64,000 nucleotides of DNA from Ruminococcus sp. Its GTDB lineage: Bacteria > Bacillota > Clostridia > Oscillospirales > Acutalibacteraceae. The stretch covers positions 20,240 through 84,239 of the forward strand of contig JAFQPG010000006.1 in the NCBI GenBank assembly GCA_017411835.1, in the 5' to 3' direction. The first letter of the stretch is position 1, and every line of letters begins with the position of its first letter. Positions 1,110 to 31,022 of this stretch are shown one piece after another. A program made the position numbers and the translations under genes. The notes under the pieces are model-generated. The model was not told the DNA's origin. It made no database searches and saw only the letters and a program-made list of their open reading frames with translations.

Positions 1110-1496
1110 AAAAAGGCCTGACTAACGCAGACACTTCGTAAAGAAGATGTCTACGTTAGTCTATTATAAATAGAAAATGACACTTTCAAGAAAGGAAAGT
1201 GTCATAGTGGGTTACATACTTTTAGAAAGGTAAATACTTGCCGAAAATAAAGCATATCTTTTTCGGCAGGTAAAGTGATATTGCAAACTAAAAGTTTGCA
1301 GTGATAGTCGACCTGCGGTCAAGTTATATGAAAGCCTTGCGGCTTTCGTTATATTATATTCGCCGTGTAAACTGTCCGAAGGACAATATAACTTGGCGAA
1401 AGCCAAATATAACTGCTAAGCAATATAACTCGCCGTAAGGCGAATATAACTGAGGCACACTTCCTTACGGAGTGTGCCTCAAGTGTCAAGCCTTTT
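1110..1496. repeat. Hairpin-array element 1 inside a split terminator
   Basis: Outer arms AAAAAGGCCTGAC (1110-1122) and GTCAAGCCTTTTT (1484-1496) are the two halves of the terminator seen intact at 661-689. Between them lie about a dozen short hairpins. The first three include TAACGCAGACA...TGTCTACGTTA, GACACTTTC...GAAAGTGTC and CTTGCCGAAAA...TTTTCGGCAGG. Then comes a run of tiny hairpins separated by a constant 8-mer: GTGATATT at 1275, a variant at 1301, GTTATATG at 1323, GTTATATT at 1348, then the complementary AATATAAC at 1385, 1406, 1422 and 1443. A GAGGCACAC...GTGTGCCTC hairpin ends it. No credible coding frame. Confidence 0.75.
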
Positions 1497-1509
1497 TTTG
1501 TTAATGAAT

Positions 1510-2514
1510 TTATCTGATACCAAATATTGTACCAATTTTTTGCAACGTCTTATTCTTTTTGGCAATGTACTTAAACAGCTCGTTTACCCCGCATATAAAA
1601 GCGATAACGAAGACGGTAAGCAAAATCGCCTTAAAGGTATTGTGCTTAACCCACAGATGATATCTGAAAAGCTGTACAGATAAGTAGTCAAGAGGTCTGA
1701 GCACCAAATACTGCATTGCCATAATGATAAGCGAGTTTTTGCCTAAGTAAACGAGCAGCTTTGAGTTGCCGATAAAGCTTACGTTTTTAAACAGGATAAA
1801 GTAGAATAAAATACTTGCGAAAGCACTGACAAGGCAAAGCGCGATATTGCCGTAAATCGCTTTTGTGTAAACAATTCGCTCGTTTAAATATGCACCAACT
1901 ACATAGCCTGTTGCAAAAAGTACAACGGCAATCAAAACCTTATATGCGGTTTTAATTACGACAGGCTTTCTTTGCTGCACATCCTTTAAGATATTACCAG
2001 AGCTGTAGAAAATCATCGCATAAGGCACGAGATTTAATTTAAAAATCAACTGTACGTGAGACATAAGCACCATACAAATTAAAGCTACCAAAAGCACCGT
2101 CAATTTTACATAAAGCTTGTCGTTTAAACGCATTATGAGCGCGTAGAGTATGTCTACGATATAAAGCACGAGCAAAAACCAGATAGGAGAATTGAAGCAC
2201 AGCTGACCGTTTACAGTCAGCATTGAAAGCATAGTTTCTTTAAAATCTTCTTTAGTCAGTAAGTCGATTACACTCGATAGAATATCCCACGCTGCAAACG
2301 GCACGAGTAACATAATAGTTTTCTTTTTTATATACGCGCCCAAAGGCTGCTTTTTGCTGTTGAATAAGTATCCCGAAATGAAGAAAAACAAAGGAACATG
2401 GAAGGAATACAAATACTTTTTAAAAGGCATAAAGCAGTTTGCATGACCGAGCGTGATGCAAAAAATGCCAAAGCCTCTAAGGGCATCAATAAAAGATAGT
2501 CGTTTTGTTTCCAT
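1510..2514 (-). CDS. Acyltransferase 3 family membrane protein (OafA/WecH-like)
   Basis: A 334-residue polytopic protein of the Acyltransferase_3 family, which moves acyl groups (often acetyl) onto cell-surface sugars or polymers. It opens with the family signature SFIDALRGFGIFCITLGHA, whose histidine is the conserved catalytic candidate, followed by SFHVPLFFFISGYLF near residues 37-51. About ten hydrophobic segments follow, the normal size for the family. The acceptor cannot be read from the sequence. A weak minus-strand promoter (TTTACT, 17 bases, TAAACT) lies upstream. Its terminator is the split one holding hairpin-array element 1. The biotin ligase gene upstream is on the same strand but 81 bp away. 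Confidence 0.85.
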   Translation of the reverse strand: METKRLSFIDALRGFGIFCITLGHANCFMPFKKYLYSFHVPLFFFISGYLFNSKKQPLGAYIKKKTIMLLVPFAAWDILSSVIDLLTKEDFKETMLSMLTVNGQLCFNSPIWFLLVLYIVDILYALIMRLNDKLYVKLTVLLVALICMVLMSHVQLIFKLNLVPYAMIFYSSGNILKDVQQRKPVVIKTAYKVLIAVVLFATGYVVGAYLNERIVYTKAIYGNIALCLVSAFASILFYFILFKNVSFIGNSKLLVYLGKNSLIIMAMQYLVLRPLDYLSVQLFRYHLWVKHNTFKAILLTVFVIAFICGVNELFKYIAKKNKTLQKIGTIFGIR

Positions 2515-2595
2515 TTAAAACCTCGGATAAAAATTTATGCCATAGTTTAGCATATTTATCTCAAAAAGTAAATGCCGATAAATCTATATCAGCAG

Positions 2596-3408
2596 TCACT
2601 TGTTTAATCTTACACTTATTTCACCGCTACAAAGAGTTTTTGTTTCTTCTCCTGTTTTGATAACAAGTCCGCCGTCTATGTCGATGTCTATAGCGGTAGC
2701 GGTTTTTGCTTGACCGTTTTCAATGTAGGTGATTTCATTACCGAGCACCATTGAACGCTCTTTGTACTTGTCAATAAAATTGCGGTCTTTGATGCTTTTT
2801 TGCATTTGTATGATGTTATCGCAAATCAACGCACAAAGCTTGTTGCGGTCAAGATTTGTGCCGACAGCTCCGGCAATCTGCAAAAGCTCTTTTGGAAAAT
2901 CGGTGGTGCTGATGTTTATACCGATTCCGATTATAATGCCCGAAAGTTTATTTTTGTCCGAGCTGTTTACTCCCTCGCACAAAATACCGCATATTTTTTT
3001 ATCATTTAGGTAAATATCATTTACCCATTTGATTTTAGGGTCTACATCACAAAGCTCTACTAAAGCGTCCGTCACGCAAACAGCAGCAGCAGACGTCATA
3101 CATACAATGTCGCTATACTCAGATTCAATATCTAAATAAAGCGACATATAGAGTCCTGTATCATTTGGGGAGTAAAACTGTCTGCCAAGTCGCCCCCTGC
3201 CCGCCGTTTGCTCGTTTGCAACAAAAAGAGTAGGGGAGCGCATAGCACCTGCGTTTCTTTTAGCTTCATTATTTGTGGAGTCGATAACATCAAAGCAGAT
3301 GATTTTTACATCGTTTTTTAAGTACGCTGATATATCCTTTGCACAAAGCGCAGAGGAGTTTAAGTTCTTATTATCAGTTTGCTTGATAAAAATCTCCTTT
3401 ATTGACAT
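2596..3408 (-). CDS. birA: Biotin--[acetyl-CoA-carboxylase] ligase, monofunctional
   Basis: A 270-residue enzyme that activates biotin with ATP to biotinyl-AMP and attaches it to a lysine of biotin carboxyl carrier proteins in the cytosol. Visible are the DSTN motif (43-46), the biotinyl-AMP loop GRGRLGR (70-76), KWVNDIYLNDKKICGIL in the active site, and a C-terminal SH3-like domain. No N-terminal helix-turn-helix precedes the catalytic domain, so it is unlikely to be the repressor type. I chose the ATG at 3408 after GGTGAGAG rather than the upstream ATG at 3459, because the intervening 17 residues do not belong to the family. Divergent from rpoB. Confidence 0.9.
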   Translation of the reverse strand: MSIKEIFIKQTDNKNLNSSALCAKDISAYLKNDVKIICFDVIDSTNNEAKRNAGAMRSPTLFVANEQTAGRGRLGRQFYSPNDTGLYMSLYLDIESEYSDIVCMTSAAAVCVTDALVELCDVDPKIKWVNDIYLNDKKICGILCEGVNSSDKNKLSGIIIGIGINISTTDFPKELLQIAGAVGTNLDRNKLCALICDNIIQMQKSIKDRNFIDKYKERSMVLGNEITYIENGQAKTATAIDIDIDGGLVIKTGEETKTLCSGEISVRLNK

Positions 3409-3838
3409 TCTCTCACCAACTTTCTTTAATATCTTAGCACAAAAAACGCCTGTTTTCAAACTGACTATATTTATAGAGGAAGTGCAGACACAAACTTTGT
3501 AACTATTTGAAATCTAAAAGACTAAACGCACCCGAGTGTGTCACACGTCTAAAAACACCAATTTGTTTCCATAAAAGAAAATACATAAAAAATATAAGAA
3601 AAATCACAAAAAATGATTGACATTATTCTTTTTTAGATATAAAATAGTAAACTGTACCATTATGGGGGCCTGTGCCCTTATTACACAACAAAGGAATTTA
3701 TAAAATGTGAATATTATCACACTTGAATGTGGTTTGTCAAGAGGTGATTTGAAAACAATTTTGTAATCTTTTGTGGTGCAAATTCAGGGTGTTTTTCGCG
3801 ACAACACCTACACAGATTTTTAAAGGAGTGATACGCCG
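3409..3838 (+). promoter_or_regulatory. rpoB promoter and untranslated leader
   Basis: Non-coding gap of 430 bp between divergent birA and rpoB. A strong promoter faces rpoB: TTGACA (3617-3622), 17 bases, TAAAAT (3640-3645), giving a leader of roughly 190 nt. The leader holds small hairpins (GGGCCTGTGCCC near 3665; GGTGTT...AACACC near 3788) and AAAGGAG before the ATG. I see no intrinsic terminator or recognisable riboswitch. rplJ/rplL, which usually precede rpoB, are absent. Confidence 0.65.
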
Positions 3839-6800
3839 ATGGTTAATGTCAAACCAGTAAAGTTAGGCAACAGCGAGCGACTCAGCTTTGGTAGAATTGA
3901 TGACGTAATCGATATGCCAAATCTGATCGAAGTGCAGAAAAAGTCCTACCAGTGGTTCCTCACAGAAGGTCTTAAGGAAGTGTTCAAGGATGTATCCGGT
4001 ATTACAGATTATCAGGACAACCTCGTACTCGACTTTATTGACTACACTCTTGATGTAGACCACCCGAACTATTCTGTAATCGAGTGTAAGGAAAGAGATG
4101 CTACTTATTCAGCAGCATTGAGAGTTACTGCTCGACTTCTTAACAAAGAGACAGGCGAAATCAAAGAATCAAATGTTTACATGGGTGATTTTCCACTTAT
4201 GACACCTTCAGGCACTTTTGTAATCAACGGTGCTGAGCGTGTTATCGTTTCCCAGCTTGTTCGTTCACCTGGTGTTTACTACAAGATGGACCACGACAAG
4301 ACAGGTAAGGAGCTGTTCTCTTCAACAGTCATCCCTAACCGTGGTGCTTGGCTTGAGTATGAAAACGATGTAAACGACGTGCTTTATGTCCGTATCGATA
4401 AGAACCGTAAAGTTCCGATTACCGTATTTTTAAGAGCTTTAGGTCTTGGCACAAATGCTGAGATTTTAGAAATGTTCGGTGACGATGCTAGAATTAAGGC
4501 TACTTTCGAAAAGGATACTACCACATCAGTTGAGGAAGGTCTTATCGAGGTTTACCGCAAACTTCGACCAAGTGAGCCTCCAACGGTAGAAAGCGCACAG
4601 ACTCATATCAACAACTTATTCTTCGACCCACGACGCTATGATATGTCAAGGGTTGGCAGATATAAATATAATAAAAAGCTCGGCATTTCAAACCGTCTTG
4701 CAGGACAGGTTACTGCTGAGCATATCGTAAACCCACGCACAGGCGAGATTTTAGCTAAGCGTGGCGATACAATCAGCAGAGATTTAGCACTTGAGATTGA
4801 AAACGCAGGTGTTAAAGAAGCTTTTGTTGCCGGTGAAGAGGGCAAAATCATTAAGATTATCTCTAACGGTATGGTTGACATCAACGCTTATGTTTCATTT
4901 GACTGTGAAGAGCTTGGTATCAACGAGAAGGTTAGATTTGATGTTCTTTGCGAAATCTTAGACTCTTGCTCAGATGATGCTCAGTTAAAGGAAGCTATCG
5001 AGAAAAGAGCTCACGAGCTTATCCCTAACCACATCACAACAGACGATATTTTCGCAACAGTGAACTATATGAACACTCTTGCTGAGCATATTGGCACAAC
5101 AGACGACATCGACCATTTAGGTAACAGACGTATCCGTTGTGTTGGCGAGCTTTTACAAAACCAGTTCAGAATTGGTTTTTCAAGACTTGAAAGAGTTATC
5201 CGCGAGCGTATGACACTCCAGGCTCAGGATCCTGAGGCTCTTTCTCCAAGCTCACTTATCAATATCCGTCCTGTAACTGCTGCTATCAGAGAGTTCTTCG
5301 GAAGCTCTCCTCTGTCACAGTTTATGGACCAGACTAACCCGCTTTCAGAGCTTACTCACAAGAGAAGACTCTCAGCACTTGGTCCTGGCGGTCTGTCGCG
5401 AGATCGTGCAGGTTTCGAGGTTCGAGACGTACACTACACACACTACGGTCGTATGTGTCCTATCGAGACTCCTGAAGGTCCTAACATCGGTCTTATCTCA
5501 TACCTTGCTACTTTTGCGAGAATTAACGAGTATGGCTTTGTTGAGGCACCATTTAGAAAAATTGATAAAGAAACAGGCGTTGTAACAGACGAGGTTGTAT
5601 ATATGACGGCCGATATGGAGGACGACTTTGTTGTTGCTCAGGCTAACGAGCCACTCGACGAAAACGGCAAGTTCGTAAACTCTAAGGTTGTCGGCAGATA
5701 CAAAGACGAGTTCGTTGAGTTTGAGCCATCTAAGTTTGACTTTATGGACGTTTCTCCACGAATGGTTGTATCTGTTGCTACTGCTATGATTCCTTTCTTG
5801 GAAAACGACGACGCAAACCGAGCGCTGATGGGCTCTAACATGCAGCGTCAGGCTGTTCCGCTTATGGTAACCGAGTCACCTATCGTTGGTACAGGTATGG
5901 AATACAAGGCAGGTACTGACTCAGGCGTTTGCGTGCTGTCTGAAGAAGACGGTATCGTTATGAGCGTTGATGCTGACCACATCCGTGTTCAGTATGACTC
6001 AGGCAGAATCGGAGATTTCGAGGTTATCAAGTTCCTACGTTCAAACCAGGGCACTTGTGTAAACCAGATTCCTGTTGTTCAAAGAGGCCAGAGAGTTAAA
6101 GCGGGCGAGGTTCTTGCTGACGGTCCTGCTACAAAGAATGGTGAAATTTCACTTGGTAAGAACGCTCTTATCGGCTTTATGACCTGGGAAGGTTACAACT
6201 ACGAGGACGCTGTTCTCATTAATGAAAAAATCGTAAGAGACGATGTTTATACATCTATCCATATTGAAGAATACGAAACAGAAGCAAGAGATACTAAGCT
6301 CGGTCCTGAGGACATCACCCGCGACATTCCTAACGTTGGTGAGGATATGCTCAAAGACCTCGACGAAAACGGTATCATCCATATCGGTGCTGAAGTTCAC
6401 GCAGGTGACATCTTAGTTGGTAAGGTAACACCAAAGGGTGAAACAGAGCTCACAGCAGAGGAAAGACTTTTAAGAGCGATCTTTGGCGAAAAGGCAAGAG
6501 AAGTAAGAGATACTTCTTTAAGAGTTCCTCATGGTGAGTCCGGTATCGTTGTTGACGTTAAGGTGTTCACTCGTGAAGACTCAAGAGACGAGCTTCAGCC
6601 TGGTGTAAACAAGGTAGTAAGATGCTATCTTGCTCAAAAGCGTAAGATTTCTGTCGGCGATAAGATGGCTGGTCGTCACGGTAACAAGGGTGTTGTATCC
6701 CGTATTTTACCTGTTGAGGATATGCCGTTCTTACCTGACGGTACTCCACTTGATATCGTGTTAAACCCACTGGGCGTACCTTCCCGTATGAACATCGGAC

Positions 6801-7630
6801 AGGTACTCGAGGTGCACTTGGGCTATGCTTGTAAGGCGCTTGGCTGGAAGATTATGACTCCGGTATTTGATGGTGCACACGAGCAGGATATCTTCGAGCT
6901 GTTCGAAAAAATCAGAGATAAAGACGATTATCCTGATAAGCGCGAGGTTACAGGCATTGACTTTGGCGAGTGCTTCAAGCACGACGGCATTTCAATGGAA
7001 TGTAAAACAAGACTTAAAGACGGTAGAACAGGTGAGTATTTTGACAACCCTGTTACCGTTGGTTATATGTACTACTTAAAGCTGCATCACCTTGTTGATG
7101 ATAAGATTCACGCAAGAAGTACAGGCCCTTACTCACTCGTTACTCAGCAGCCACTGGGCGGTAAAGCACAGTTTGGTGGTCAGCGTTTCGGTGAGATGGA
7201 AGTTTGGGCACTTGAGGCTTACGGTGCTGCATATACACTTCAGGAAATTCTGACTGTTAAGTCTGACGACGTCGTAGGTCGTGTGAAAACTTACGAGTCT
7301 ATCGTCAAGGGTCAGAATATCCCAACACCTGGTATTCCTGAATCGTTCAAGGTTCTTATCAAAGAGCTCCAGTCATTGTCACTTGATGTACGAGTTCTTG
7401 ATGAAAACGGCGGCGAGATTGACTTAAAACAGAAATTCGACGAGGACGAGGAAGTTGGCGTAGTTGTTGCAGAAGACGAGACTCTAAACGAGGATCAGGT
7501 AATGACTACTATGGACGGTTTCTTGCTCGACGAAGATTCAGAAGAGGGCAATATGTTTGACGAGTCTTCTATCTACGAAGACCAAGACGATATGCTCGAA
7601 TTTGATGACTACGGCAGCGACGAAATGTAA
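3839..7630 (+). CDS. rpoB: DNA-directed RNA polymerase subunit beta
   Basis: A 1263-residue catalytic subunit of RNA polymerase. With beta' it forms the active centre, and it carries the rifamycin pocket. The family's conserved blocks run in order: the N-terminal region, the rifampicin region ([14 protein letters not shown], then [14 protein letters not shown]), the switch/flap regions, [18 protein letters not shown], and the C-terminal block with [18 protein letters not shown]. Asp (FMDQ), His (THKRR) and Ser (RLSAL) at classic resistance sites are wild type, so rifampicin sensitivity is predicted. The last ~75 residues form a strongly acidic tail that is extra to the core. Starts at an ATG ten bases after AAAGGAG; rpoC follows 14 bp downstream. 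Confidence 0.98.
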
Positions 7631-7644
7631 GGAGGAGCAAAACT

Positions 7645-10600
7645 ATGGATAATAACGTATTTGATTCAATTAAAATAGGCCTTGCTTCCCCTGACCAGAT
7701 CAGAGAGTGGTCATACGGCGAGGTTAAAAAGCCTGAAACAATTAACTATCGTACTTTAAAGCCTGAGCGCGACGGTCTTTTCTGCGAGCGTATTTTCGGA
7801 CCTACAAAGGACTGGGAATGCCACTGCGGTAAGTACAAGAGAATCAGATTTAAAGGTAAGGTTTGTGACCGTTGCGGTGTTGAAGTAACACGCGCTAAGG
7901 TCAGAAGAGAAAGAATGGGTCACATCGAGCTCGCTGCTCCTGTGTCACATATCTGGTACTTCAAAGGTATCCCATCAAGAATTTCTCTGATGCTCGACAT
8001 CTCTCCAAGAAATCTTGAAAAGGTACTTTACTTTGCATCATATATCGTAACCGATCCGGGTGATGCAAGAGAGCTTGCTAAAATGCAGTTCTTAAATGAG
8101 CAGGAATATCGCGATATGCGCGAAAAATACGAGGACGACTTCAAAGCTTCTATGGGTGCTGAAGCTATCAAAGAGCTTCTTTCTCAGATTGACCTTGAAG
8201 CATTATCAGCAGAGCTTAAGGAAGAGCTCGAGGGCGCTACAGGTCAAAAGCGTGTAAGACTGCAAAAGCGTCTTGAGGTTGTTGAAGCGTTCAGAGTTTC
8301 GGGTAATCGTCCTGAGTGGATGATTCTTGACGTTGTTCCTGTAATTCCACCGGATATCAGACCTATGGTACAGCTCGACGGCGGTCGTTTTGCAACATCT
8401 GACTTAAACGACCTCTACCGCAGAGTTATCAATAGAAACAACCGTCTTAAGAGACTTTTAGAGCTCGAAGCTCCTGACATCATCATCAGAAATGAAAAGA
8501 GAATGCTTCAGGAAGCTGTAGACGCTCTTATCGACAACGGCAGACGTGGAAGACCTGTTACAGGTCCAAACAACCGTGCGCTTAAGTCACTTTCCGATAT
8601 GCTTAAGGGTAAGCAGGGACGTTTTCGTCAGAACCTGCTTGGTAAGCGTGTTGACTACTCCGGTCGTTCGGTTATCGTTGTTGGTCCTGAGCTTAAGATG
8701 TATCAGTGCGGTCTTCCAAAGGAGATGGCACTTGAGCTGTTCAAACCATTCGTTATGAAGCGCCTTGTAGAAACAAAGGCAGTTCAGAATATCAAAGCAG
8801 CCAGAAAAGCTGTTGAGCGTGCAAAGCCGGAGGTATGGGATGCACTTGAGGTTGTAATCAAGGGCCATCCGGTACTCTTAAACCGAGCACCTACACTTCA
8901 CCGTCTTGGTATACAGGCGTTTGAGCCTGTACTTGTAGAGGGTAGAGCGCTTAAGCTTCACCCACTCGTATGTACTGCGTACAACGCTGACTTCGACGGC
9001 GACCAGATGGCTGTTCACGTTCCACTTTCTGCAGAAGCACAGGCAGAGGCTAGATTCCTTATGCTTGCTGCAGGCAACCTTTTAAAACCATCTGACGGAC
9101 GCCCTGTTGCTGTTCCTACACAGGATATGGTCTTAGGTTCATACTATCTCACCCTTGACAAAGACGGTGAAATAGGCGAGGGCAAGGTGTTTAGAGATAT
9201 CGACGAGGCTATGATGGCTTATCAGGCAGGTGTAGTAACTCTGCACTCAAAGATTAAAGTCAGAAGAACCATCACCGTTGATGGCGTTGAAAAGAGCGGT
9301 ATCGTTGATACAACAGTTGGTAAGATTATCTTCAACCGTCCTATCCCACAGGACTTAGGTTTTGTTGATAGAACAGACCCTGAAAATATGTTCAAGTTCG
9401 AGATTGACTTCCTTGTTGGCAAGAAACAGCTTGGTAAAATCATCGACGCTTGCATCAAGATTCATGGCACAGAGGTTACTTCCGTTGTGCTTGACGAGGT
9501 TAAATCACAGGGTTATAAATACTCAACCCGCGGTGCTATCACCGTTGCTGTTTGTGATGCTAAAATCCCACCTGAGAAGAAGGAGATTATCGCAAAGGCT
9601 GAGGCTGATGTAGATGCTGTAAGAGAAGAATATCTGATGGGTCTTCGTTCAGACGAAGAGCGTTACGAAGAAGTTCTCAAAATCTGGGAAAAGGCTACAA
9701 ACGACGTTACTTCAAAGCTTCAGGGCAACCTTGATAGGTACAATCCTATCTTTATGATGGCTGACTCAGGTGCTCGAGGCAGTATGAGCCAGATTCGTCA
9801 GCTTGCAGGTATGCGTGGTCTTATCGCGAATACATCAGGTAAGACTATCGAAATTCCTATTCGAGCTAACTACCGTGAAGGTCTTAACATTTTAGAGTAC
9901 TTTATTTCATCTCGTGGTGCGCGTAAAGGTCTTGCCGATACAGCGCTTAGAACTGCTGACTCCGGTTACCTTACACGTCGACTTGTTGACGTATCACAGG
10001 ATGTTATCATCCGTGAGGACGACTGTCATTCAAATGAGGGTCTTGAGGTATTTGATATCAAAGCAGGTAAGCAGACAATCGAGGGCTTACACGAGCGTCT
10101 TATCGGTCGTTACCTCGTACACGACTTTACTGACGAGTCAGGCAATGTGCTCGTATCTAAAGATACTCTTATGGGCGACAAGGAAGCAGACATCATCTGT
10201 GCGTCAGGTGTTGAGAAAATCGAGATTCGTTCAATCTTAGGCTGTCATTCAAAGCACGGCGTATGTAAGAAGTGTTACGGCTCTAACCTTGCTAACGGCC
10301 AGCCTGTTACAGTCGGTGAGGCTGTAGGTATTATCGCTGCTCAGTCTATCGGTGAGCCTGGTACTCAGCTTACAATGAGAACCTTCCATACCGGTGGTGT
10401 TGCGTCAGCAGAAGATATCACACAGGGTCTTCCACGTGTCGAAGAACTCTTCGAGTCACGTAAGCCAAAGAGCCTTGCTATCATCAGTGAAATCGACGGT
10501 GAAGTCAGATTTGAAGACATCAAGAACAACCGTCACGCTGTTGTATATAATAAGGAAACATCTGAAGAAAAAGCATATCTTATCCCATTCGGATTCAGAG

Positions 10601-21175: not shown

Positions 21176-21186
21176 TAAGGTAAAAT

Positions 21187-21558
21187 AAAAGACCGAGCGT
21201 TTGCCCAAGTGTTCTTAAGGACACTTGGGCAGTTTTATTCGCCATGCGGCGAGTGATATTGCTACGCAGTTATATTCGGCTAACGCCGAGTGTTATTCGC
21301 TTTGCGAGTTTTAAAAGGCGAATAAAATATCACTAAAACCGTAGGTTTTAATATCACGATTGCCGTCGGCAATCATATCACTCTTTGCGTAGCAAAGAAT
21401 ATCACTATATAAAAATTACTACCCGAAAAAGAGGTTTGTTTTCTCTTCTTCGGGTAGTTTTGTCTTATACTGTCACAAGCAGGGAATTTGTGTGCCAAAT
21501 TCCGTTTTTATTGAAGGTAACTGTCCTTAGGAAACCTGCTCATTCTGCTCGGTCTTTT
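21187..21558. repeat. Hairpin-array element 2 inside a split terminator
   Basis: Outer arms AAAAGACCGAGC (21187-21198) and GCTCGGTCTTTT (21547-21558) are an exact 12-bp inverted repeat, with T runs on both strands, enclosing about 348 bp. Inside are a GCCCAAGTG...CACTTGGGC hairpin and then a run of unique mini-hairpins with 3-4 base loops. The spacers are GTGATATT (21253), GTTATATT (21269) and GTGTTATT (21290), and in the second half AATATCAC (21326, 21350, 21398) and ATATCAC (21375). A second-level stem TTTTATTCGCC / GGCGAATAAAA spans the first half. CTACCCGAA...TTCGGGTAG and two more hairpins follow. No coding frame. Confidence 0.8.
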
Positions 21559-21571
21559 TTAATTTTATCTA

Positions 21572-21723
21572 ATTTTGTGAAGGCTTCGGGGAACGGCGCT
21601 TAGATATCACGCCTCGTTCACCTACGCATCTCTTCAAAAATCTACTGTCTCGCATTGATTTTTTTCGTTGACCGAGTCAACTACAAAAATGCAGACTCGA
21701 CCTTGATTTTGTGAAGGCTTCGG
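21572..21723. repeat. 18-bp direct repeat at the 3' end of pheA
   Basis: ATTTTGTGAAGGCTTCGG occurs at 21572-21589 and 21706-21723. In both copies it is followed about eight bases later by GCGCTTA, which in the second copy includes the pheA stop. The intervening ~115 bp has no coding frame. Probably a small duplication of the gene's end. Confidence 0.6.
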
Positions 21724-21733
21724 TACTCAGCGC

Positions 21734-22855: not shown

Positions 22856-22868
22856 TTTTATCTGTCCT

Positions 22869-23939: not shown

Positions 23940-25227
23940 TTGCTTTTCCCCCTAAGCCGTTATAGTCGGTAAAAAAGTCGGAATACGACTTGTTGATTGC
24001 GTTTGCGTCAGATATTTGCACGTCGTTTTCGGTGTTAAGGCCTGCGATAGATGCGGACATAACAATTCTGTGGTCGTTATATCCGTCGACCTTTGAGCCT
24101 TTTAATGCGCCCAAACCCTTGATAGTTAAAGCATCGCTTGTGTAAAAAGCACTACCGCCAAGACTGTTTATCATATCAGTCGTTGATTTCAGTCGGTCGC
24201 TTTCTTTAAATTTCAGCCTTTCTACACCAACAATTTCGGTGTCGCCGACAGCATACGAGCTCAACACAGCGAGCACAGGCACTAAATCGGGTGTGTCGAT
24301 CGCGTTGATTTTTGTGCCTTTAAGCGCAGATTTTTGAACAGATACGCTGTTGTTTTCTATCTTTATATCAGCACCGAAAGCTTTTAAATATTCTACAATC
24401 GCTTTGTCACCTTGCGCAGAATTTACATCGAGATTTGTGACGGTGACATCGCCACATATTGCACCACCGCAAAGGAAAAACGCCGCTTGGGACCAGTCGC
24501 CCTCGACGTTGATGCCAATATCTTCTTTTGTATAATCGTCGTTTAAGATATAGCTTTGACCGCCTTTTATTTTAAATGAATTGTTACATTTTTGCACATT
24601 TACCGAGAACTTACTCATCACGCTTGTGGTGATGTCGACGTACTGACCGCCCAAAAGCTCAGCAGTTAAATTAAGTGTAGTATCATTTTCAAGCAAAGAA
24701 AGTGCAAAAATAAGACCCGATACGTACTGCGAGCTGACTTTTGGAGAAACTTCGAAAATTTCTCCCTTGAGTGCTCCCGAGATTGTAAGCGGTAAAAAGT
24801 CGTCGCCCTTTTGTACTTTTACACCACATTGTGGCAAAAGCGTTAAGTACTCATCAAGCGGTCTTTTAGGCAGTCTGCCTTCGCCAATAAAGGTGACGTT
24901 TAGTCCCAAAGCTGCACAAATTGGTATCATAATACGCAAGGTTGTGCCGCTTTCTTTGCAGTTTAATATAAATTTTTCTTTAGAGTTTTTCTGCACAAAT
25001 GAGGTTGCGTCGCACAAAAGCGTTTTGCCCTTTTTAACAAATTTCGCACCGAGCGCCTCTAAACACGAGATGGTCGCGTCCATATCGTCAGAAAAGGACA
25101 TATTTTTTATATAGCATTTTTGTCTTGATAAAGCCGCACAAATCATAATTCGATGTGCAAAGCTTTTAGACGACGGCGCAGATACAGTCCCGTTTAGTAC
25201 AGATTTTTTTATAATTGCTTTTGACAT
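23923..25227 (-). CDS. aroA: 3-phosphoshikimate 1-carboxyvinyltransferase (EPSP synthase)
   Basis: A 434-residue enzyme joining phosphoenolpyruvate to shikimate-3-phosphate. The N-terminal SAPSSKSFAHR binds shikimate phosphate. The PEP-site loop reads CKESGTTLRIMIP, whose ESGTT form differs from the GNAGT of glyphosate-sensitive class I enzymes. RLKFKESDRL and DHRIVMSASIAG complete the active site. I do not assign a glyphosate phenotype. Overlaps aroC and is 13 bp after aroB. Confidence 0.95.
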   Translation of the reverse strand: MSKAIIKKSVLNGTVSAPSSKSFAHRIMICAALSRQKCYIKNMSFSDDMDATISCLEALGAKFVKKGKTLLCDATSFVQKNSKEKFILNCKESGTTLRIMIPICAALGLNVTFIGEGRLPKRPLDEYLTLLPQCGVKVQKGDDFLPLTISGALKGEIFEVSPKVSSQYVSGLIFALSLLENDTTLNLTAELLGGQYVDITTSVMSKFSVNVQKCNNSFKIKGGQSYILNDDYTKEDIGINVEGDWSQAAFFLCGGAICGDVTVTNLDVNSAQGDKAIVEYLKAFGADIKIENNSVSVQKSALKGTKINAIDTPDLVPVLAVLSSYAVGDTEIVGVERLKFKESDRLKSTTDMINSLGGSAFYTSDALTIKGLGALKGSKVDGYNDHRIVMSASIAGLNTENDVQISDANAINKSYSDFFTDYNGLGGKANVILG

Positions 25228-25240
25228 TTATTTCTCCGTA

Positions 25241-26287
25241 TTATTTAAGAAATTGAGCGAAATCGTTTTTATAAATTGTGTGGATAAAGCACTCGCCAAG
25301 CTCTTTTAAAAGCACGATGTTGAGTTTTTCTCCACTACCTTTTTTATCGTTTTTAGCGCTTTGAGCGATGTCATCAATGCTGAAATTCACGTCAGTATTG
25401 AGATTGCATTTTTTGCAAAGCTCAATGATTTTTAAAGCACTGCCGGCTTTAGTAAGTCCGAGCTTTTCAGACGCCTTTGTAATAAGCACCATACCTTTTG
25501 CAACGCTCTCGCCGTGAGAAAGCGAAAAGTCGCTTAGCTTTTCAATCGAGTGACCTGCGGTATGACCGAAGTTTAAAATCATTCGAATACCGCTTTCACG
25601 CTCGTCTTCGTTTACGACGTCACGCTTGATTTTAAGACATTCTAAAATGATGTCCTCGATATTTTCTTTTATATCTACATTATTAAGCATATCAAAAAGC
25701 TCTACGCTTTTGATACAACCGTATTTGATGACCTCGCCCATACCGTCAGCAAAGTAGTGCTTAGTCAAAGTATCAAGGGTATCTGGATCAATCAAAACAA
25801 GTTTAGGCTGATAAAAAGCACCGACTAAGTTTTTACCGAATCGGGTGTCAACGCCCGTCTTTCCGCCGACTGACGAGTCGACCTGCGACAAAAGCGTTGT
25901 CGGTATCTGAATAAAGTCTATACCACGCATATAGGTAGCCGATGCAAAGCCCGCGATATCTCCGCATACTCCGCCTCCAAGAGCTAAAACGCAGTCTTTT
26001 CTAGTGAAGTCGTTTTCAGACAGCGAGTCGTAAATTTTCTCAACAGTAGAGAGATTTTTGTTTTGCTCGCCTGCAGGGAAAATATGGGTAAAAACAGAGT
26101 AGTCTGTGTTTTCAAAAGCCGACTTAACCGTTTGAAGATAAAGCGGTGCAACATTTGAGTCGGTGATTATCATCACCTTTTTGCCGCAAAGGTGCTCGGT
26201 GATGTACTGCGCACAGTTTTTAAGTATACCTTTTTCAATTAAAATATCGTAGGTAGCAGACTGTGCATTTACGGTTAGTTTTTTCAT
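25241..26287 (-). CDS. aroB: 3-dehydroquinate synthase
   Basis: A 348-residue NAD- and metal-dependent enzyme that cyclises DAHP to 3-dehydroquinate. The signature blocks are present: LALGGGVCGDIAGFASATYMRG, IPTTLLSQVDSSVGGKTGVD, metal ligands in GMGEVIKYGCI, and LNFGHTAGHSIE. Length is typical. Overlaps the end of aroK by four bases (ATGA-type coupling). DAHP synthase, the preceding step, is not in this operon. Confidence 0.96.
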   Translation of the reverse strand: MKKLTVNAQSATYDILIEKGILKNCAQYITEHLCGKKVMIITDSNVAPLYLQTVKSAFENTDYSVFTHIFPAGEQNKNLSTVEKIYDSLSENDFTRKDCVLALGGGVCGDIAGFASATYMRGIDFIQIPTTLLSQVDSSVGGKTGVDTRFGKNLVGAFYQPKLVLIDPDTLDTLTKHYFADGMGEVIKYGCIKSVELFDMLNNVDIKENIEDIILECLKIKRDVVNEDERESGIRMILNFGHTAGHSIEKLSDFSLSHGESVAKGMVLITKASEKLGLTKAGSALKIIELCKKCNLNTDVNFSIDDIAQSAKNDKKGSGEKLNIVLLKELGECFIHTIYKNDFAQFLK

Positions 26288-26793
26288 ATAAATCCTTCTT
26301 TTTTTATCTTGTCGATTATCATTTTTGCAAGCGTTTTGCCATCTTGTGTAGAGCAGGTGATTTTGACATCGCTCACGAAGTTGTAAGTGTTTATACGCTT
26401 ATTGTAGAGTTTGTCTATGTCGTTTGATTTAAGTAGCGGGCGACTGGTGTCGTTTAAAAGACGGTTCTTTATAACGGCTAAATCGGTGTCAAGAAAAACG
26501 ATTAGGTAGCCGTTATCTTTTAAGGCTTTAACATTACGCTCAAACATCACAGCCCCTCCACCTAAAGCGAGTACCAGGTCGCGTTGTTTTGTAAGAGTCA
26601 AAATAGCGCTATGCTCTTTTTCTCTAAAATACTCTTCACCGTATTTTTCAAAAAGCTCTGATATACTCATTAAGCAGTTTTCTTCTATGTATTTGTCAGT
26701 ATCAATGTGTTTAAGGTTGTACTCATTTTCAAGAGCATTTGCGACGGTGGTTTTTCCGCAGCCCATGAACCCGCACAGCGCAATACCTTTCAT
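26284..26793 (-). CDS. aroK: Shikimate kinase
   Basis: A 169-residue P-loop kinase that phosphorylates shikimate at O3. The Walker A motif GFMGCGKTTV is at residues ~8-17, DTDKYIEE binds shikimate and magnesium, and LALGGGAV is the conserved glycine-rich loop. The LID arginine lies in TSRPLL. Lies between aroE and aroB with a 12-bp gap and a 4-bp overlap. Confidence 0.95.
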   Translation of the reverse strand: MKGIALCGFMGCGKTTVANALENEYNLKHIDTDKYIEENCLMSISELFEKYGEEYFREKEHSAILTLTKQRDLVLALGGGAVMFERNVKALKDNGYLIVFLDTDLAVIKNRLLNDTSRPLLKSNDIDKLYNKRINTYNFVSDVKITCSTQDGKTLAKMIIDKIKKEGFI

Positions 26794-26805
26794 ATTATCA
26801 CCCTG

Positions 26806-27639
26806 TTATCTTAGCTTGTCAGCAGTTTTTTCGCAGATAGAAAGCAACTGCTCGTCAGTATATTTTGCGCCTACCCAGATTTCGTGAGCCTTTGCCGCTT
26901 GGTAGACGAGCATATCAATCGAGCCGATTGCGTTTTTGTTAAATTCTTCTGCTTTTTTAAGCAGTTTTGTTTTGAGTGGATTATACACAGCATCAAATAC
27001 TGCATCTGCATTTTTGATTATTTCATCGCTTGCAACACACTCGTCTACATTTGGAAACATACCGACCGGAGTTGCGTTTACAAGAAGCGAAAACTTTTTG
27101 TCATAAGGGATGCTGTCAAGGGAGAAAACCTCAGCTTTTACATTGAGCTTTTGAAATATTTCGTTAGTAAGCTTTTTGCAGTTGTCTAAACTTTTTTGAC
27201 GTACCGCAAAGCTTACTTTACAGCCGTTTTGTATACATTCAAAAGCGATTGCACGCGCAGCACCGCCGTAGCCGAAAATCAGCACGTCTTTTGGTAAAGC
27301 GTTGTTACACTTTGCTTTTACTGCAGATACAAAGCCGTAGCCGTCGGTAGTAAAGCCTTCGCTGATTTTTTCGTTTTTAACAGTGTTTACGCTGTTGCAC
27401 AGCATCGCTTTTTCGCTTATTTTATCAAGCTTACTAATAATACCGATTTTATGGGGGATAGTTACATTGTAGCCGTCAAGGCTTTTAAGCTCTTTTTCAT
27501 AGCTTAAATCAAGATTTTCTATATCAAGCGCTTGATATTGGGCTTGTATATTATCGAGTTTAAAAAGCTCGTTATGGATAAATGGAGAGAGGCTGTGACC
27601 GATTGGGTGACCGATGACAGCGTATTTTTTTACGCTCAT
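26806..27639 (-). CDS. aroE: Shikimate dehydrogenase
   Basis: A 277-residue NADPH-dependent enzyme reducing 3-dehydroshikimate to shikimate. The N-terminal GHPIGHSLSPFIHN and the catalytic lysine/aspartate region (NVTIPHK) bind substrate. IFGYGGAARAIAFECI is the nucleotide-binding loop, and VYNPLKTKLLKKA is the conserved C-terminal motif. First gene of a six-gene minus-strand operon (aroE-aroK-aroB-aroA-aroC-pheA) leading from dehydroshikimate toward phenylpyruvate. aroD/aroQ (dehydroquinase) is not in the window. Ribosome site ATAGGAG. I found no T-box or attenuator in its short leader. Confidence 0.95.
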   Translation of the reverse strand: MSVKKYAVIGHPIGHSLSPFIHNELFKLDNIQAQYQALDIENLDLSYEKELKSLDGYNVTIPHKIGIISKLDKISEKAMLCNSVNTVKNEKISEGFTTDGYGFVSAVKAKCNNALPKDVLIFGYGGAARAIAFECIQNGCKVSFAVRQKSLDNCKKLTNEIFQKLNVKAEVFSLDSIPYDKKFSLLVNATPVGMFPNVDECVASDEIIKNADAVFDAVYNPLKTKLLKKAEEFNKNAIGSIDMLVYQAAKAHEIWVGAKYTDEQLLSICEKTADKLR

Positions 27640-27683
27640 AAATTTCTCCTATAGAAATAACAATTAAAAAATTGACATAATTA

Positions 27684-27712
27684 TTGACAAAGATATTGAA
27701 TACTAATAATAT
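27684..27712 (+). promoter_or_regulatory. acpP promoter
   Basis: TTGACA (27684-27689), 17 bases, TAATAT (27707-27712). The ~150-nt leader contains a possible hairpin (GTGCGCTAC...GTAGCAC, 27730-27767). Confidence 0.65.
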
Positions 27713-27862
27713 GAACTAGTAGATATAAGTGCGCTACCTGTAGATAAAAAACAAAAGGGCAGTAGCACAGGTTGTGTTTTACGGTGGATATTATAGCACA
27801 GAAAATGGTTGTTTGTCTACAAAAAAGCACAGCAAAGCAACATTTTTTGGAGGATTAGAATT

Positions 27863-28090
27863 ATGGTATTAGAGAAAGTTAAATTCATTTTATCTGAACA
27901 GCTTGAGGTCGAAGAAGATACTATCACAGCCCAGACAGATATTCAGGACGATTTAGGCGCAGATTCGCTTGACATCGTTGATATGGTGATGTCACTTGAG
28001 GACGAGTTTGAAATCGAATTGCCTGATGAAGATATCGAAAGTCTGCGTACAGTTGGTGCTCTCGTATCTTACATTGAAGCAAGAATCTGA
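27863..28090 (+). CDS. acpP: Acyl carrier protein
   Basis: A 75-residue acidic helical carrier that holds growing fatty acyl chains on a 4'-phosphopantetheine arm. The attachment site is Ser35 in LGADSLDIVDMV. The typical EDEFEIELPDEDIE helix III region follows. The ATG at 27863 lies after TGGAGG; an open frame extends 18 codons upstream, but acyl carrier proteins do not have such an extension. Monocistronic, with its own promoter and terminator, and no fatty-acid synthesis genes nearby. Confidence 0.95.
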   Translation: MVLEKVKFILSEQLEVEEDTITAQTDIQDDLGADSLDIVDMVMSLEDEFEIELPDEDIESLRTVGALVSYIEARI

Positions 28091-28108
28091 TTTTGTAAAA
28101 ATTTTTCA

Positions 28109-28138
28109 GGCCAGACCTTTGTGTCTGGTCTTTTTTTA
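28109..28138 (+). terminator. acpP terminator
   Basis: Stem CCAGAC / GTCTGG (loop CTTTGT), followed by TCTTTTTTT. Confidence 0.85.
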
Positions 28139-28139
28139 C

Positions 28140-28168
28140 TTGAAAAAGTTTATGTATAATAGTATAAT
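28140..28168 (+). promoter_or_regulatory. proS promoter
   Basis: TTGAAA (28140-28145), 17 bases, TATAAT (28163-28168), 30 bp before the gene. Confidence 0.7.
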
Positions 28169-28197
28169 ATATTGGTTAATACAAAGGAGGGGCAAAA

Positions 28198-29637
28198 ATG
28201 GCTGATAAAAAGAAAATGGTCGAGGCGATTACCAGCCGCGACACCGATTTTGCTAAATGGTACACCGACATAGTTAAGAAGGCTGAGCTTGTAGATTACT
28301 CGGGCGTAAAGGGATGTATGGTTATTCGTCCGTACGGCTACGCTATCTGGGAAAATATTCAGGCTGACTTAGACCGTCGCTTTAAGGAAAAAGGACACGA
28401 AAACGTATATATGCCGATGTTTATTCCTGAAAGCCTTTTACAGAAAGAAAAGGACCACGTAGAGGGTTTTGCTCCTGAGTGTGCGTGGGTTACTATCGGC
28501 GGTAGCGAAAAATTAAACGAAAAGCTTTGCGTGCGCCCAACATCAGAAACACTTTTCTGTGAGCATTACGCAAAGGTTATCAATACATATAGAGATTTAC
28601 CAAAGCTGTATAATCAATGGTGTTCTGTAGTAAGATGGGAAAAAACTACCCGTCCGTTTTTAAGAACATCAGAGTTTTTGTGGCAGGAAGGCCACACAAT
28701 GCACGAAACAGCGCAAGAAGCACAGGAAGAGACGCTCACAATGCTCAAAGTCTACGAGGATTTTTACAGAGAGACTCTTGCTATCCCTGCGGTTGTTGGT
28801 AAAAAGACAGAAAAAGAAAAGTTCGCCGGCGCTTTAGCTACTTACACAATCGAGCCTATGATGCACAACGGTGTAGCATTGCAGGGCGGTACATCACATT
28901 ACTTCGGCGACGGCTTTGCAAAGAGCTTTGACATCAAATATCAGGGTAGAGATAACCAGCTTCATTACCCACACCAGACCTCTTGGGGTGTATCAACTCG
29001 TATGATTGGCGCTATCATTATGGTGCACGGCGACGACGACGGTCTTGTTCTCCCACCAAAGGTGTCACCAATTCAGGTTGCTATCATTCCGATTGCGACC
29101 CACAAAGAGGGCGTACTCGAAAAGGGTAAGGAGCTTTACGACAGATTAAAATCTCAGTTTAGAGTTAAATACGACGACTCAGACCAGTCACCTGGCTGGA
29201 AATTTTCACAGTACGAGATGAAGGGCGTACCTGTACGAGTAGAGCTCGGTCCTAAGGATATCGAGAAAAACCAGTGCGTTATCGTACGCAGAGATACACG
29301 AGAAAAGATTTTTGTTTCTCTTGATAATCTTGAAGCTGAGGTCGAGAAGGCTTTGCAGGCTGTTCACGATGGTATGTACCAGCGTGCACTCGATAATATG
29401 AACGAAAAGACCTTTGTCGCAACTGACTTTGAGCAGTTCGTTAAGATAGCCGAAGAAACACCGGGCTTTATCAAAGCTATGTGGTGTGGCGACAAAGAGT
29501 GTGAAGAAAAAATCAAAGACGTCACAGGTGGCGTAAAGAGTAGATGTATCCCATTTGAAGAAGAGCATCTTTCTGACAAATGCGTTTGCTGCTCAAAGCA
29601 AGCGAAGCATATGGTATATTGGGGCAAACAGTACTGA
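28198..29637 (+). CDS. proS: Prolyl-tRNA synthetase, archaeal/eukaryotic-type
   Basis: A 479-residue class II aminoacyl-tRNA synthetase charging tRNA-Pro. It is the short type without the inserted editing domain of the common bacterial ProRS. Class II motifs are visible: motif 2 in the [22 protein letters not shown] region, and motif 3 in [22 protein letters not shown]. An anticodon-binding domain follows, then a C-terminal zinc-binding-like domain with clustered cysteines ([11 protein letters not shown] ... [10 protein letters not shown]). This type is common in Clostridia. Ribosome site AAAGGAGGGG; metA follows 46 bp later and may be cotranscribed. Confidence 0.95.
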
Positions 29638-29683
29638 TACTATATAAGCTATACTTGAAATTATAAAAAAAGGAGGCGGTAAT

Positions 29684-30619
29684 ATGCCGATTAAAGTTGC
29701 GAATGATTTACCTGCTACAAAGATTTTAGAATCAGAGAACATCTTTGTTATGCCGGAAAAGCGCGCTATCACGCAGGACATCCGTCCGCTTAAGATTATC
29801 ATCGTAAATCTTATGCCGACTAAAATCGTGACCGAAACACAGCTTTTAAGATTGCTCGGTAATTCACCGCTTCAGGTTGATATTGAGCTTTTGCAGATGG
29901 CTTCCCACGAGTCTAAAAACACGTCTAAAAAGCATCTCACCACCTTTTACAAAACCTTTGACGAGATTAAAGACCGAAAGTTTGACGGTATGATTGTGAC
30001 AGGTGCTCCTGTAGAATTGCTACCTTTTGAAGAGGTCGACTACTGGGACGAGCTGTGCGAGATTTTTGAATGGGCTAAAAAGAACGTGTACTCGACTTTC
30101 TTTATTTGTTGGGGTGCACAGGCAGGGCTGTACCACCATTACGGTATCGGCAAAGTCACCTATGATAAGAAGCTAAGCGGTGTGTATCGCCATCGTCCGC
30201 TAAATCCGTTGCACCCTCTGCTACGTGGTTTTGACGATGAGTTTTATTGTCCGCATTCGCGCAACACAGGTGTAAACCACGATGATTTGCAGCATATCGA
30301 AGAACTCGAGATTTTGGCTGCGGGGGATACCACAGGCGTGTCTATCGTCTGCAACAAAAACGGCAGACAGTTTTTCATACTCGGTCACTTTGAGTATGAC
30401 GCCGACACCCTAGCTAACGAGTACTACAGGGACAAGAACAAGGGCATAAATCCTGAAATTCCGTACAACTATTTTCCGAACAATGATGTTACTAAAAAAC
30501 CTGTGATGACTTGGCGCAGTAGTGCGGCTTTGCTTTACTACAACTGGTTAAACTACTATTTGTATCAGCAGACACCGTACGATTTAGAAGACTTAAAGAA
30601 GCTTTACGAGGCTGAATAA
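29684..30619 (+). CDS. metA: Homoserine O-acyltransferase, predicted acetyl-CoA-specific
   Basis: A 311-residue MetA-family enzyme activating homoserine for methionine synthesis. The catalytic cysteine is Cys142 (ICWGAQAG), with His235 and Glu237 (GHFEYD). Residue 111, which decides the acyl donor in this family, is Glu (TGAPVEL). Glu111 favours acetyl-CoA, whereas Gly at this site favours succinyl-CoA. It is therefore probably a homoserine O-acetyltransferase despite its MetA-type sequence. Normal length, ribosome site AAAGGAGGCGG. It ends ahead of the split terminator of hairpin-array element 3, convergent with sigF. Confidence 0.93.
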
Positions 30620-30637
30620 ACTGAATAAAATAAAATG

Positions 30638-31022
30638 GCTCCCGATTTAGCGTGATACTCCAAGCGGAGCATCACGCAACTCTATTCGCCTACGACGATT
30701 TATATTGCTTCGCAGTGATATTATGCTTCGCATAGTGATATTGTCCTGCGGACAGTTATGGCGAATAGAATATCACGAAACCCATAGGTTTCATATCGCT
30801 TTCGCAAAGCGAAAATATCACGCTGACGATAGTCAGCATATAAATTAAAAGACAAAAAGAAAGAGAAGACTCGTTATCCAAACGAATCTTCTCTTTTTCT
30901 GTCGTTAGTGGGTTTGGGCTACTGTCCAAGTGCGTTTGTACATACAAACGCGATGCGGGTTCTCGACGGAAGTTGAGAGATTTTCAAATTCTCCGTTAAG
31001 AACAACACGCTTTTTCGGGAGC
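30638..31022. repeat. Hairpin-array element 3 inside a split terminator
   Basis: Outer arms GCTCCCGA (30638-30645) and TCGGGAGC (31015-31022), with AT-rich tails on both strands, enclose about 369 bp. Inside is GCGTGATACTCC...GGAGCATCACGC, then mini-hairpins separated by GTGATATT (30715, 30735) and the complementary AATATCAC (30769, 30814), plus a degenerate CATATCGC (30792). A second-level stem TATTCGCC / GGCGAATA spans the first half. An AAGAGAAGA...TCTTCTCTT hairpin with a T-rich tail and GCGTTTGTA...TACAAACGC follow. No coding frame. Lies between convergent metA and sigF. Confidence 0.8.

What the first reader, a model, noticed from the sequence alone, without database searches (positions are those of the whole stretch)
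1110..31022. Family of ~370-390-bp hairpin arrays nested inside split bidirectional terminators (elements 1-3)
Seen directly: three loci (1110-1496, 21187-21558, 30638-31022) share four properties. (1) Each lies between convergent genes. (2) Each is bounded by an inverted repeat that by itself looks like an intrinsic terminator stem, with the element in its loop. (3) The interior is a run of mini-hairpins with different stems and 3-5 base loops. (4) The hairpins are separated by a constant 8-mer, GTGATATT/GTTATATT in the left half and its reverse complement in the right half, so the whole element can fold as a multi-armed structure. Inference: a dispersed, expandable non-coding element that targets terminator loops, or a mechanism that builds hairpins within terminators. 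I do not recognise a named repeat family.
Basis: partly seen in the sequence, partly recalled or inferred. Interest (0 to 1): 0.82.

Follow-up and report, generated by a model that had tools for sequence, protein, structure and literature searches.

The report
Hairpin-array elements inside transcription terminators
Three non-coding DNA segments in this bacterium belong to a widespread family of dispersed, mobile-looking elements made of small hairpins joined by a fixed 8-letter word; they sit inside the loops of transcription-terminator hairpins, and full-length relatives carry a gene of a small protein family whose job is unknown.

Summary
In detail: three arrays of mini-hairpins, joined by GTKATATT on the left and AATATMAC on the right, each inside the loop of a split terminator. 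The genome has 14 copies. Across 89 copies the stems covary: 627 two-sided changes against 161 shuffled. G·U and A·C cells are equally rare (27 and 30 of 2,714), pointing to DNA palindromes rather than one-strand RNA. Empty sites exist: in relative G014 one site is an uninterrupted terminator with the same 10-bp stem. No array was found at 70 of 70 orthologous places over six sites. Own flanks pair beyond swapped flanks (18 of 48 vs 3 of 2,256).

About a third of 92 IVP loci have such arrays, with different words, and the word tracks the protein clade (17 changes vs 38.8 shuffled). Phage contigs carry them.

Best reading: a mobile element family in hairpin loops, like rRNA IVSs but in terminators, with IVP as word-specific binder. 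Dispersal and coupling are shown; binding and mobility are inferred.

The parts
1110..1122 (.). element 1 (W1): left terminator arm AAAAAGGCCTGAC
   Evidence: in relative G016 the same place is an uninterrupted terminator AAAGGCTTCC-loop-GGAAGCCTTT
1274..1452 (-). element 1: core hairpin array (seven hairpins, word GTKATATT, clamp ATTCGCC/GGCGAAT), canonical orientation on the minus strand
   Evidence: CM R1 178 bits, in the model's seed
1452..1480 (-). element 1: outer palindrome H0 / 5' terminal inverted repeat (canonical GAGGCACACTCCGTAAGGAAGTGTGCCTC)
1123..1273 (-). element 1: tail with further hairpins and 3' terminal repeat (canonical ..TTTACGAAGTGTCTGCG)
1485..1499 (.). element 1: right terminator arm GTCAAGCC + T-run
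21187..21198 (.). element 2 (W2): left terminator arm AAAAGACCGAGC
   Evidence: plain terminators at this site in G016, G079, G011, G025 and, by eye, G014
21203..21230 (+). element 2: outer palindrome H0 / 5' terminal repeat GCCCAAGTGTTCTTAAGGACACTTGGGC
21230..21406 (+). element 2: core hairpin array
   Evidence: CM R1 174.9 bits, seed
21407..21546 (+). element 2: tail (hairpin CTACCCGAAAAAGAGG..CTTCTTCGGGTAG) and 3' terminal repeat CTGTCCTTAGGAAACCTGCTC
21547..21560 (.). element 2: right terminator arm GCTCGGTC + T-run
30638..30645 (.). element 3 (W3): left terminator arm GCTCCCGA
   Evidence: G079 has AAACAGCTCCCTGAAAGGGAGCTGTTT at this site
30650..30677 (+). element 3: outer palindrome H0 / 5' terminal repeat GCGTGATACTCCAAGCGGAGCATCACGC
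30677..30845 (+). element 3: core hairpin array
   Evidence: CM R1 161.2 bits, seed
30846..31014 (+). element 3: tail (GGGTTTGGGC..CAAACGCGATGC) and 3' terminal repeat TCCGTTAAGAACAACACGC
31015..31029 (.). element 3: right terminator arm TCGGGAGC + T-rich run
48017..48190 (+). parallel family in the same window: array with word AGCTAAA left and TTTAGCT right, after a tRNA-linked terminator
   Evidence: 5 forward + 3 reverse 7-mers, maximum 3 in 20 shuffles
48241..48600 (+). IVP gene (PF05635 / TIGR02436, four helix bundle protein, 119 aa) coupled to that array
   Evidence: PF05635 E 2.9e-27, TIGR02436 1.1e-31

Best explanation
The three loci are gene-less copies of a dispersed insertion element. 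Its parts in order: a 5' palindrome (H0) that holds one terminal inverted repeat; a core of seven small DNA palindromes joined by a fixed word S (AGTGATATT) on the left and its reverse complement on the right, with a clamp ATTCGCC/GGCGAAT; in full-length copies an IVP gene (PF05635) behind a promoter-like sequence; a tail; and a 3' terminal repeat. The element sits inside the loop of an intrinsic terminator, so its terminal repeats can extend the terminator stem and termination is probably spared. Shown: copy number, shared anatomy, covarying palindromes, uninterrupted terminators at orthologous sites, coupling of arrays to IVP genes, and a word that follows the IVP protein clade. Inferred: the IVP multimer (relatives form rings of four-helix bundles) binds the word repeats in its own array, holds the folded or single-stranded array as a nucleoprotein complex, and this complex is inserted by unknown enzymes into hairpin loops. 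Gene-less copies would spread in trans. The parallel is the IVS that replaces loops of 23S rRNA helices.
For: Empty sites: C5:25196 in G014 AAGTCCGTTTCA-TAA-TGAAACGGACTT against own GTCCGTTTCA..element..TGAAACGGAC; W3 in G079 CAGCTCCCTGAAAGGGAGCTG; C5:6521 in G016 GGCTCCTGTAAAAACAGGAGC; no array in 70 of 70 orthologous places over 6 sites. Own flanks pair beyond swapped flanks, 18 of 48 vs 3 of 2,256. Covariation; strand symmetry. IVP coupling: best 7-mer counted both ways >=5 in 33 of 92 upstream regions vs 3 of 86 downstream; hairpins >=5 in 35 of 88 upstream vs 15 of 85 downstream and 2 of 440 shuffles. Word follows clade: 17 changes, minimum 10, shuffled 38.8, 0 of 200 as low. The gene-bearing copy C10 shares tail sequence with gene-less copies. 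Horizontal spread: IVP identity G014-G045 92.9% although RpoB of own genome is 95% identical to G014's and 68% to G045's. A viral contig carries a gene-less copy inside its own terminator.
Against: No transposition, excision product, transcript or protein binding was observed. No enzyme is known; only Y1 transposases were searched, and they do not fit. G045 has many array matches, yet none of its four IVP loci belongs to the GTGATATT clade. No clear target-site duplication. Only one empty site has a fully identical stem; elsewhere terminators match in part or differ. In 24 of 48 elements the own flank was not the best partner, partly tandem or gene-bearing copies. In C10 no matching terminator arm was seen after the IVP gene. 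Downstream regions of IVP genes also have some excess of hairpins. The large covariation count uses an alignment fitted to the structure; word labels were chosen after seeing the data.
Confidence: 0.7

Rival explanations
1. Host-maintained 3'-end element: the array is a bidirectional terminator/insulator or mRNA-stability structure between convergent genes (REP/BIME-like in role), multiplied because it is useful.
For: Lies in terminators, often between convergent genes (8 of 12 sites by eye); very stable folding; strand symmetry fits two-way transcription.
Against: Close relatives do with plain terminators at the same sites; patchy within the genus, 12 of 36 genomes including own; some copies are followed by a protein gene with the same tail; occurs on viral contigs.
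Confidence: 0.12
2. The arrays are operators: the IVP protein is a regulator that binds its word repeats upstream of its own promoter, and dispersed copies form a regulon or decoys.
For: Word follows IVP clade; promoter-like TTGAAA..TATAAT directly after the last word in several loci (read by eye).
Against: Gene-less copies sit at gene 3' ends in terminators; an operator needs no covarying palindromes nor flanks that form a split terminator.
Confidence: 0.1
3. A REP/PATE-like element mobilised by a Y1 (IS200/IS605 or RAYT) transposase acting on hairpins in single-stranded DNA.
For: DNA-level palindromes, no clear target duplication, hairpin targets; own genome has one Y1 gene.
Against: Array-bearing genomes without a Y1 match: G038, G050, G053, G054 (98-100% complete), G046 and G058 (85-86% complete). 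The own Y1 gene is on contig C4, which holds no copy. The coupled gene is IVP.
Confidence: 0.08
4. Mutational origin: template switching during replication builds and perfects palindromes inside terminator loops, with no element moving.
For: Stems are nearly perfect and usually differ on both sides at once.
Against: Position-by-position homology of seven hairpins, clamp, tail and ends across genera; near-identical copies at different sites, C5:154 kb, C5:183 kb and C5:66 kb.
Confidence: 0.04

Closest known systems
Intervening sequences (IVS) of bacterial 23S rRNA genes
   Same: Same protein family (PF05635); replace the loop of a hairpin; bordered by complementary sequences that extend the stem; sporadic, horizontally acquired (PMC4990558: abstract, introduction and the start of the methods read).
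   Different: Here the hosts are transcription terminators and tRNA-operon ends, not rRNA; many dispersed and gene-less copies; word-hairpin array with clade-specific words; RNase III excision untested.
MITEs (miniature inverted-repeat transposable elements; features recalled)
   Same: Short, non-coding, dispersed, terminal inverted repeats, presumably moved in trans.
   Different: No clear target duplication, no transposase partner known; nested in terminator loops; internal array of covarying palindromes.
REP/BIME elements with RAYT (Y1) proteins (features recalled)
   Same: Extragenic palindromes at gene 3' ends, many copies.
   Different: Seven different palindromes with a constant spacer word in one element; no Y1 match in six array-bearing genomes.
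Diversity-generating retroelement accessory protein Avd
   Same: Structural relative of PF05635 (PMC10053308, passages read).
   Different: No reverse transcriptase or template/variable repeat was looked for here; arrays of this kind are not part of DGRs as I recall them.
Hypervariable interspersed repeat arrays / CRISPR-like arrays
   Same: Constant repeat with variable parts between, next to a protein gene; a figure legend of PMC10910872 (passages read) lists 23S rRNA IVP among CRISPR-linked proteins.
   Different: Variable parts are palindromes, the repeat inverts at mid-element, and the element is dispersed with ends of its own.

Membership tests
23S rRNA IVS | located inside 23S (or 16S) rRNA genes | tested here: not met
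   All 14 own copies are intergenic, in protein-gene or tRNA-operon terminators
23S rRNA IVS | S23p/IVP open reading frame | tested here: met
   PF05635 gene after the array in C10 (8.7e-27) and at window 48241 (2.9e-27); not in the three copies of the finding
23S rRNA IVS | replaces a hairpin loop and is bordered by complementary ends | tested here: met
   Empty sites and flank pairing
23S rRNA IVS | excised from the transcript by RNase III | not testable with these tools
   needs RNA
MITE | terminal inverted repeats | tested here: met
   e.g. GCGTGATACTCTTATC / GATAAGAACATCACGC, read by eye; no statistic was made
MITE | target-site duplication | tested here: inconclusive
   junction leftovers of about 3-5 nt differ between the two sides in most copies read; ancestral loop unknown
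MITE | derived from a transposase element in the same genomes | not tested
   only Y1 transposases were searched
REP/BIME-RAYT | Y1 (RAYT) protein in the genomes that carry the repeat | tested here: not met
   no Y1 match in G038, G046, G050, G053, G054, G058 although arrays match there; G046 and G058 are 85-86% complete
Rfam families | match above gathering score | tested here: not met
   only two tRNAs and an S10 leader in the window
DGR | reverse transcriptase with template and variable repeats | not tested
   no RT search was run

The most novel reading that the evidence does not exclude
IVP/Avd-like four-helix-bundle proteins are the core of a general class of mobile elements that home into nucleic-acid hairpin loops. 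Each protein lineage recognises its own short word, repeated in both orientations around an array of palindromes; terminator-loop elements, tRNA-end elements and rRNA IVSs would be branches of one class, and the word-protein pairs a natural series of matched binding specificities.
Probability: 0.4. Interest if true: 0.9.

Novelty: categorically new. Interest (0 to 1): 0.82.

Why it matters
The IVP/S23p proteins are said to have no known function (PMC4990558, introduction). Finding that different IVP clades each go with a different repeated word gives a direct, cheap test: does each protein bind its own word? It also reveals a common class of dispersed elements in gut Clostridia that seems to avoid harm by lying inside terminator loops, and suggests a relation between them and the intervening sequences of rRNA.

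Tried and rejected
Single-strand RNA element: rejected as the main reading because G·U and A·C cells are equally rare (27 vs 30 of 2,714) and the model hits both strands of the same copies. The clamp ATTCGCC/GGCGAAT is conserved but does not covary within the GTGATATT family (95.7% paired against 95.0% shuffled), so its pairing is not supported there; across families it changes with the word, seen by eye only. Y1 transposase as general partner: rejected. Rfam: no match. Papers: no hit for the word sequences (0 papers); none seen for IVP with hairpin arrays in the listings; the library is open-access only. PMC4679880 (TAACTGA repeats, passages only) holds none of 'four helix', 'intervening sequence', '23S'.

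Weaker results and dropped rows. The first flank-pairing score was swamped by A/T runs: own partner best in 17 of 49, and 2,214 of 2,352 swapped pairs passed the cut. I then changed to a G/C-weighted score and a narrower 3' range; the figures quoted are from that second version. The 71 elements are 14 own copies and 57 of the 60 uncut matches above 100 bits, which searched 80 of the 114 loci (L081:16, L097 and L069 left out). Of the 71, 15 tRNA-type or odd copies and 8 with short flanks were dropped to reach 48. IVP statistics used 92 loci: 30 returned, 60 fetched, plus C10 and the window copy; the remaining, mostly weak or contig-edge, matches were not fetched. The tree used 85 of the 92 (7 under 85 aa); word labels are regular expressions written, and some loci with many hairpins (L317, L326) are labelled 'none'. 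In the orthologue count one W2 locus (L264) reads partly N and one C5:183 locus has 408 nt instead of 500. Tail comparison: the C10 tail beats the maximum of 200 shuffles against 4 of 7 gene-less tails, the L203 tail against 6 of 7. Some counts in my notebook (11 of 36, 13 of 23, 33 of 90) were wrong and are recounted here.
Full report
WHAT IS THERE. The three loci were read directly. Each has an A-tract and a short G+C-rich arm, a long palindrome (H0), a core array, a tail with more hairpins, and the complementary arm followed by T's (element 1 in reverse). They fold far better than shuffled sequence (z -13.3, -12.3, -10.4; 0 of 100 shuffles each). The word GTKATATT occurs 18 times in the window against 4.8 expected. 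In the whole 1.7-Mb genome the spaced word pair gives 43 matches, with 0 for the reversed control; they fall at 12 insertion sites with 14 copies. Aligned, the copies are homologous position by position: H0; hairpin 0 with the left clamp arm ATTCGCC; hairpins 1-3 separated by GTKATATT; right clamp arm GGCGAAT; AATATMAC; hairpins 4-6 separated by AATATMAC; tail. C5:6521 lacks hairpin 5, and C10 and C1 lack or change the tail.

COVARIATION. On the 14 own copies the seven-hairpin structure has 93.6% paired cells and 63 two-sided changes against 16.3 in shuffles and 6-19 when partners are slid. On 89 copies aligned to the model (87 distinct rows) it has 97.2% paired and 627 two-sided changes against 161 shuffled and 35-89 slid; that alignment was fitted to this structure, which favours it. 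Leaving out the constant frame pairs, 2,714 cells hold 2,604 Watson-Crick, 27 G·U and 30 A·C; left half 13 and 21, right half 14 and 9. A hairpin needed as RNA from one strand should tolerate G·U more than A·C; near-equality suggests that both strands count. I take this as evidence for palindromes kept at DNA level, or read on both strands.

TERMINATOR LOOPS AND EMPTY SITES. In close relatives of the same genus the orthologous places hold plain terminators. C5:25196: own GTCCGTTTCA-element-TGAAACGGAC; G014 GTCCGTTTCA-TAA-TGAAACGGAC, next gene the same by eye. W3: G079 CAGCTCCCTGAAAGGGAGCTG. C5:6521: G016 GGCTCCTGTAAAAACAGGAGC. W1: G016 AAAGGCTTCCTTTTTAGGAAGCCTTT. W2 and C5:183 kb: terminators of other sequence. 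Counting GTKATATT words in the 500 nt after the gene, three or more were found in 0 of 29 W2, 0 of 29 W3, 0 of 2 C5:25, 0 of 4 C5:183 and 0 of 5 C5:6 orthologues, and none in the 400 nt around the W1 site of G016. The wider W2 and W3 orthologues often have other neighbours, so the 21 closest weigh most; of these the script finds a terminator-like hairpin in 18, and by eye the other three have longer or imperfect ones. Across 48 copies, the 5' flank pairs with the copy's own 3' flank at score 24 or more in 18, against 3 of 2,256 swapped pairs, and the own partner ranks first in 24 (the first, noisier version is told in Tried and rejected). The 3' arm lies at near-constant distance from the core within some subfamilies (167-169 nt in five TAGCGTGATACTC copies, 138-139 in four TTGCCCAAG copies) and varies more in others, so the ends look like the element's own. 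Terminal inverted repeats are visible by eye, e.g. GCGTGATACTCTTATC with GATAAGAACATCACGC. Copies after tRNA operons lack the split arms; their core follows the terminator directly.

THE PARTNER GENE. In C10 (L037) the array is followed within about 60 nt by a 119-aa gene and then by the tail motif ACAAATGCGATGCTGG known from gene-less copies (alignment with C14 scores 68 against a maximum of 54 in 200 shuffles; 4 of 7 gene-less tails exceed their shuffles). The protein is PF05635, 23S rRNA intervening sequence protein (8.7e-27), and TIGR02436 four helix bundle protein; the only solved chain found is 2rld, five chains in one entry. PF05635 occurs in 40 of 59 genomes and in 0 of 14 control genomes. 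Reading around these genes showed further arrays with other words and the same plan. The best 7-mer counted in both orientations reaches 5 in 33 of 92 upstream and 3 of 86 downstream regions; five or more hairpins occur in 35 of 88 upstream, 15 of 85 downstream and 2 of 440 shuffled regions. Word and protein go together: on a tree of 85 IVPs, 11 labels need 17 changes where 10 is the least possible and shuffles need 38.8 (0 of 200 as low); among 40 array-bearing rows 10 words need 10 changes. Not every word is one clade: RTGAAGT needs 4 changes, several others 2. Of the 45 rows labelled 'none', 36 lie outside the clade of 47 that holds 38 of the 40 array rows. Several IVPs without hairpin arrays, and plasmid IVPs of Bernardetia, Planktothrix, Treponema and Monoglobus, have tandem short words upstream and the inverted word downstream, a looser form of the same theme seen by eye.

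SPREAD. The model R1 finds arrays in 12 of 36 genomes of the own genus (own included) and in 12 of 23 genomes of other families of the order; it also catches some other word families, so these are counts of the broad class. IVP identity across families exceeds RpoB identity: G014-G045 92.9%, G010-G045 88.7%, own-G053 82.8%, against RpoB of own vs G045 68% and vs G053 70%. Two viral contigs hold the pattern. L360 has terminase-, portal- and capsid-like genes (by eye) and a gene-less copy inside its own terminator ACGGTAGG/CCTACCGT. Two unannotated faecal phage scaffolds of GenBank (marked UNVERIFIED) carry array plus IVP, by eye.

HOW IT MAY WORK. Shown: a dispersed element inside terminator loops, a coupled IVP gene, and a word that follows the protein clade. 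Inferred: IVP binds the words. The word appears in both orientations, which suits a double-stranded or two-strand DNA target, and a ring of several four-helix bundles could hold several words at once. Insertion into loops would follow from affinity for hairpins or single-stranded loops and would do little harm because the terminator stem closes again around the element. What cuts and joins DNA is unknown. The nearest parallel is the IVS of 23S rRNA: same protein family, loop replaced by an extended stem-loop, sporadic horizontal occurrence (PMC4990558). It fails the rRNA-location test, so I do not call it an IVS.

JUDGEMENT. Ordinary explanations (host terminator element, operator, Y1-moved REP) each leave major facts unexplained. 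I rate it categorically new with the caution that the literature was searched only in an open-access library and that mobility and binding are untested.

Noticed in passing
window 47718-48690: The end of a tRNA gene plus its terminator (CTCAGCGCGCCATAGAAAAGCCGTACACCC..) is repeated at about 47720 and 47960, with a shorter copy near 48665, bracketing a segment of about 215 bp and the AGCTAAA array with its IVP gene: looks like tandem insertions at a tRNA 3' end.
   Followed up: partly
L195, L198, L208, L294, L305, L309 upstream of IVP genes: Terminators in front of these arrays, mostly of tRNA genes, share an apical sequence like TTTGTCTACNAGACAAA inside variable lower stems, as if the terminator loop itself had been replaced.
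   Followed up: no
L363 (Bernardetia), L364 (Planktothrix), L366 (Treponema), L367 (Monoglobus): Plasmid IVP genes are preceded by tandem short words (e.g. AGTGATT repeated many times) and followed by the inverted word, without hairpins between.
   Followed up: partly
C5:154034-154575 and C5:182908-183427 (L035, L036): Tandem pairs of near-identical elements lying within one pair of terminator arms.
   Followed up: no
PMC10910872 figure legend: 23S rRNA IVP is listed among CRISPR-linked proteins in a repeat-array survey; IVP word arrays might be mistaken for CRISPR-like arrays.
   Followed up: no
L037:2274-2711 (-): A GNAT-like acetyltransferase gene (by eye) follows directly after the tail of the IVP-bearing element; possibly extra cargo or a simple neighbour.
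   Followed up: no
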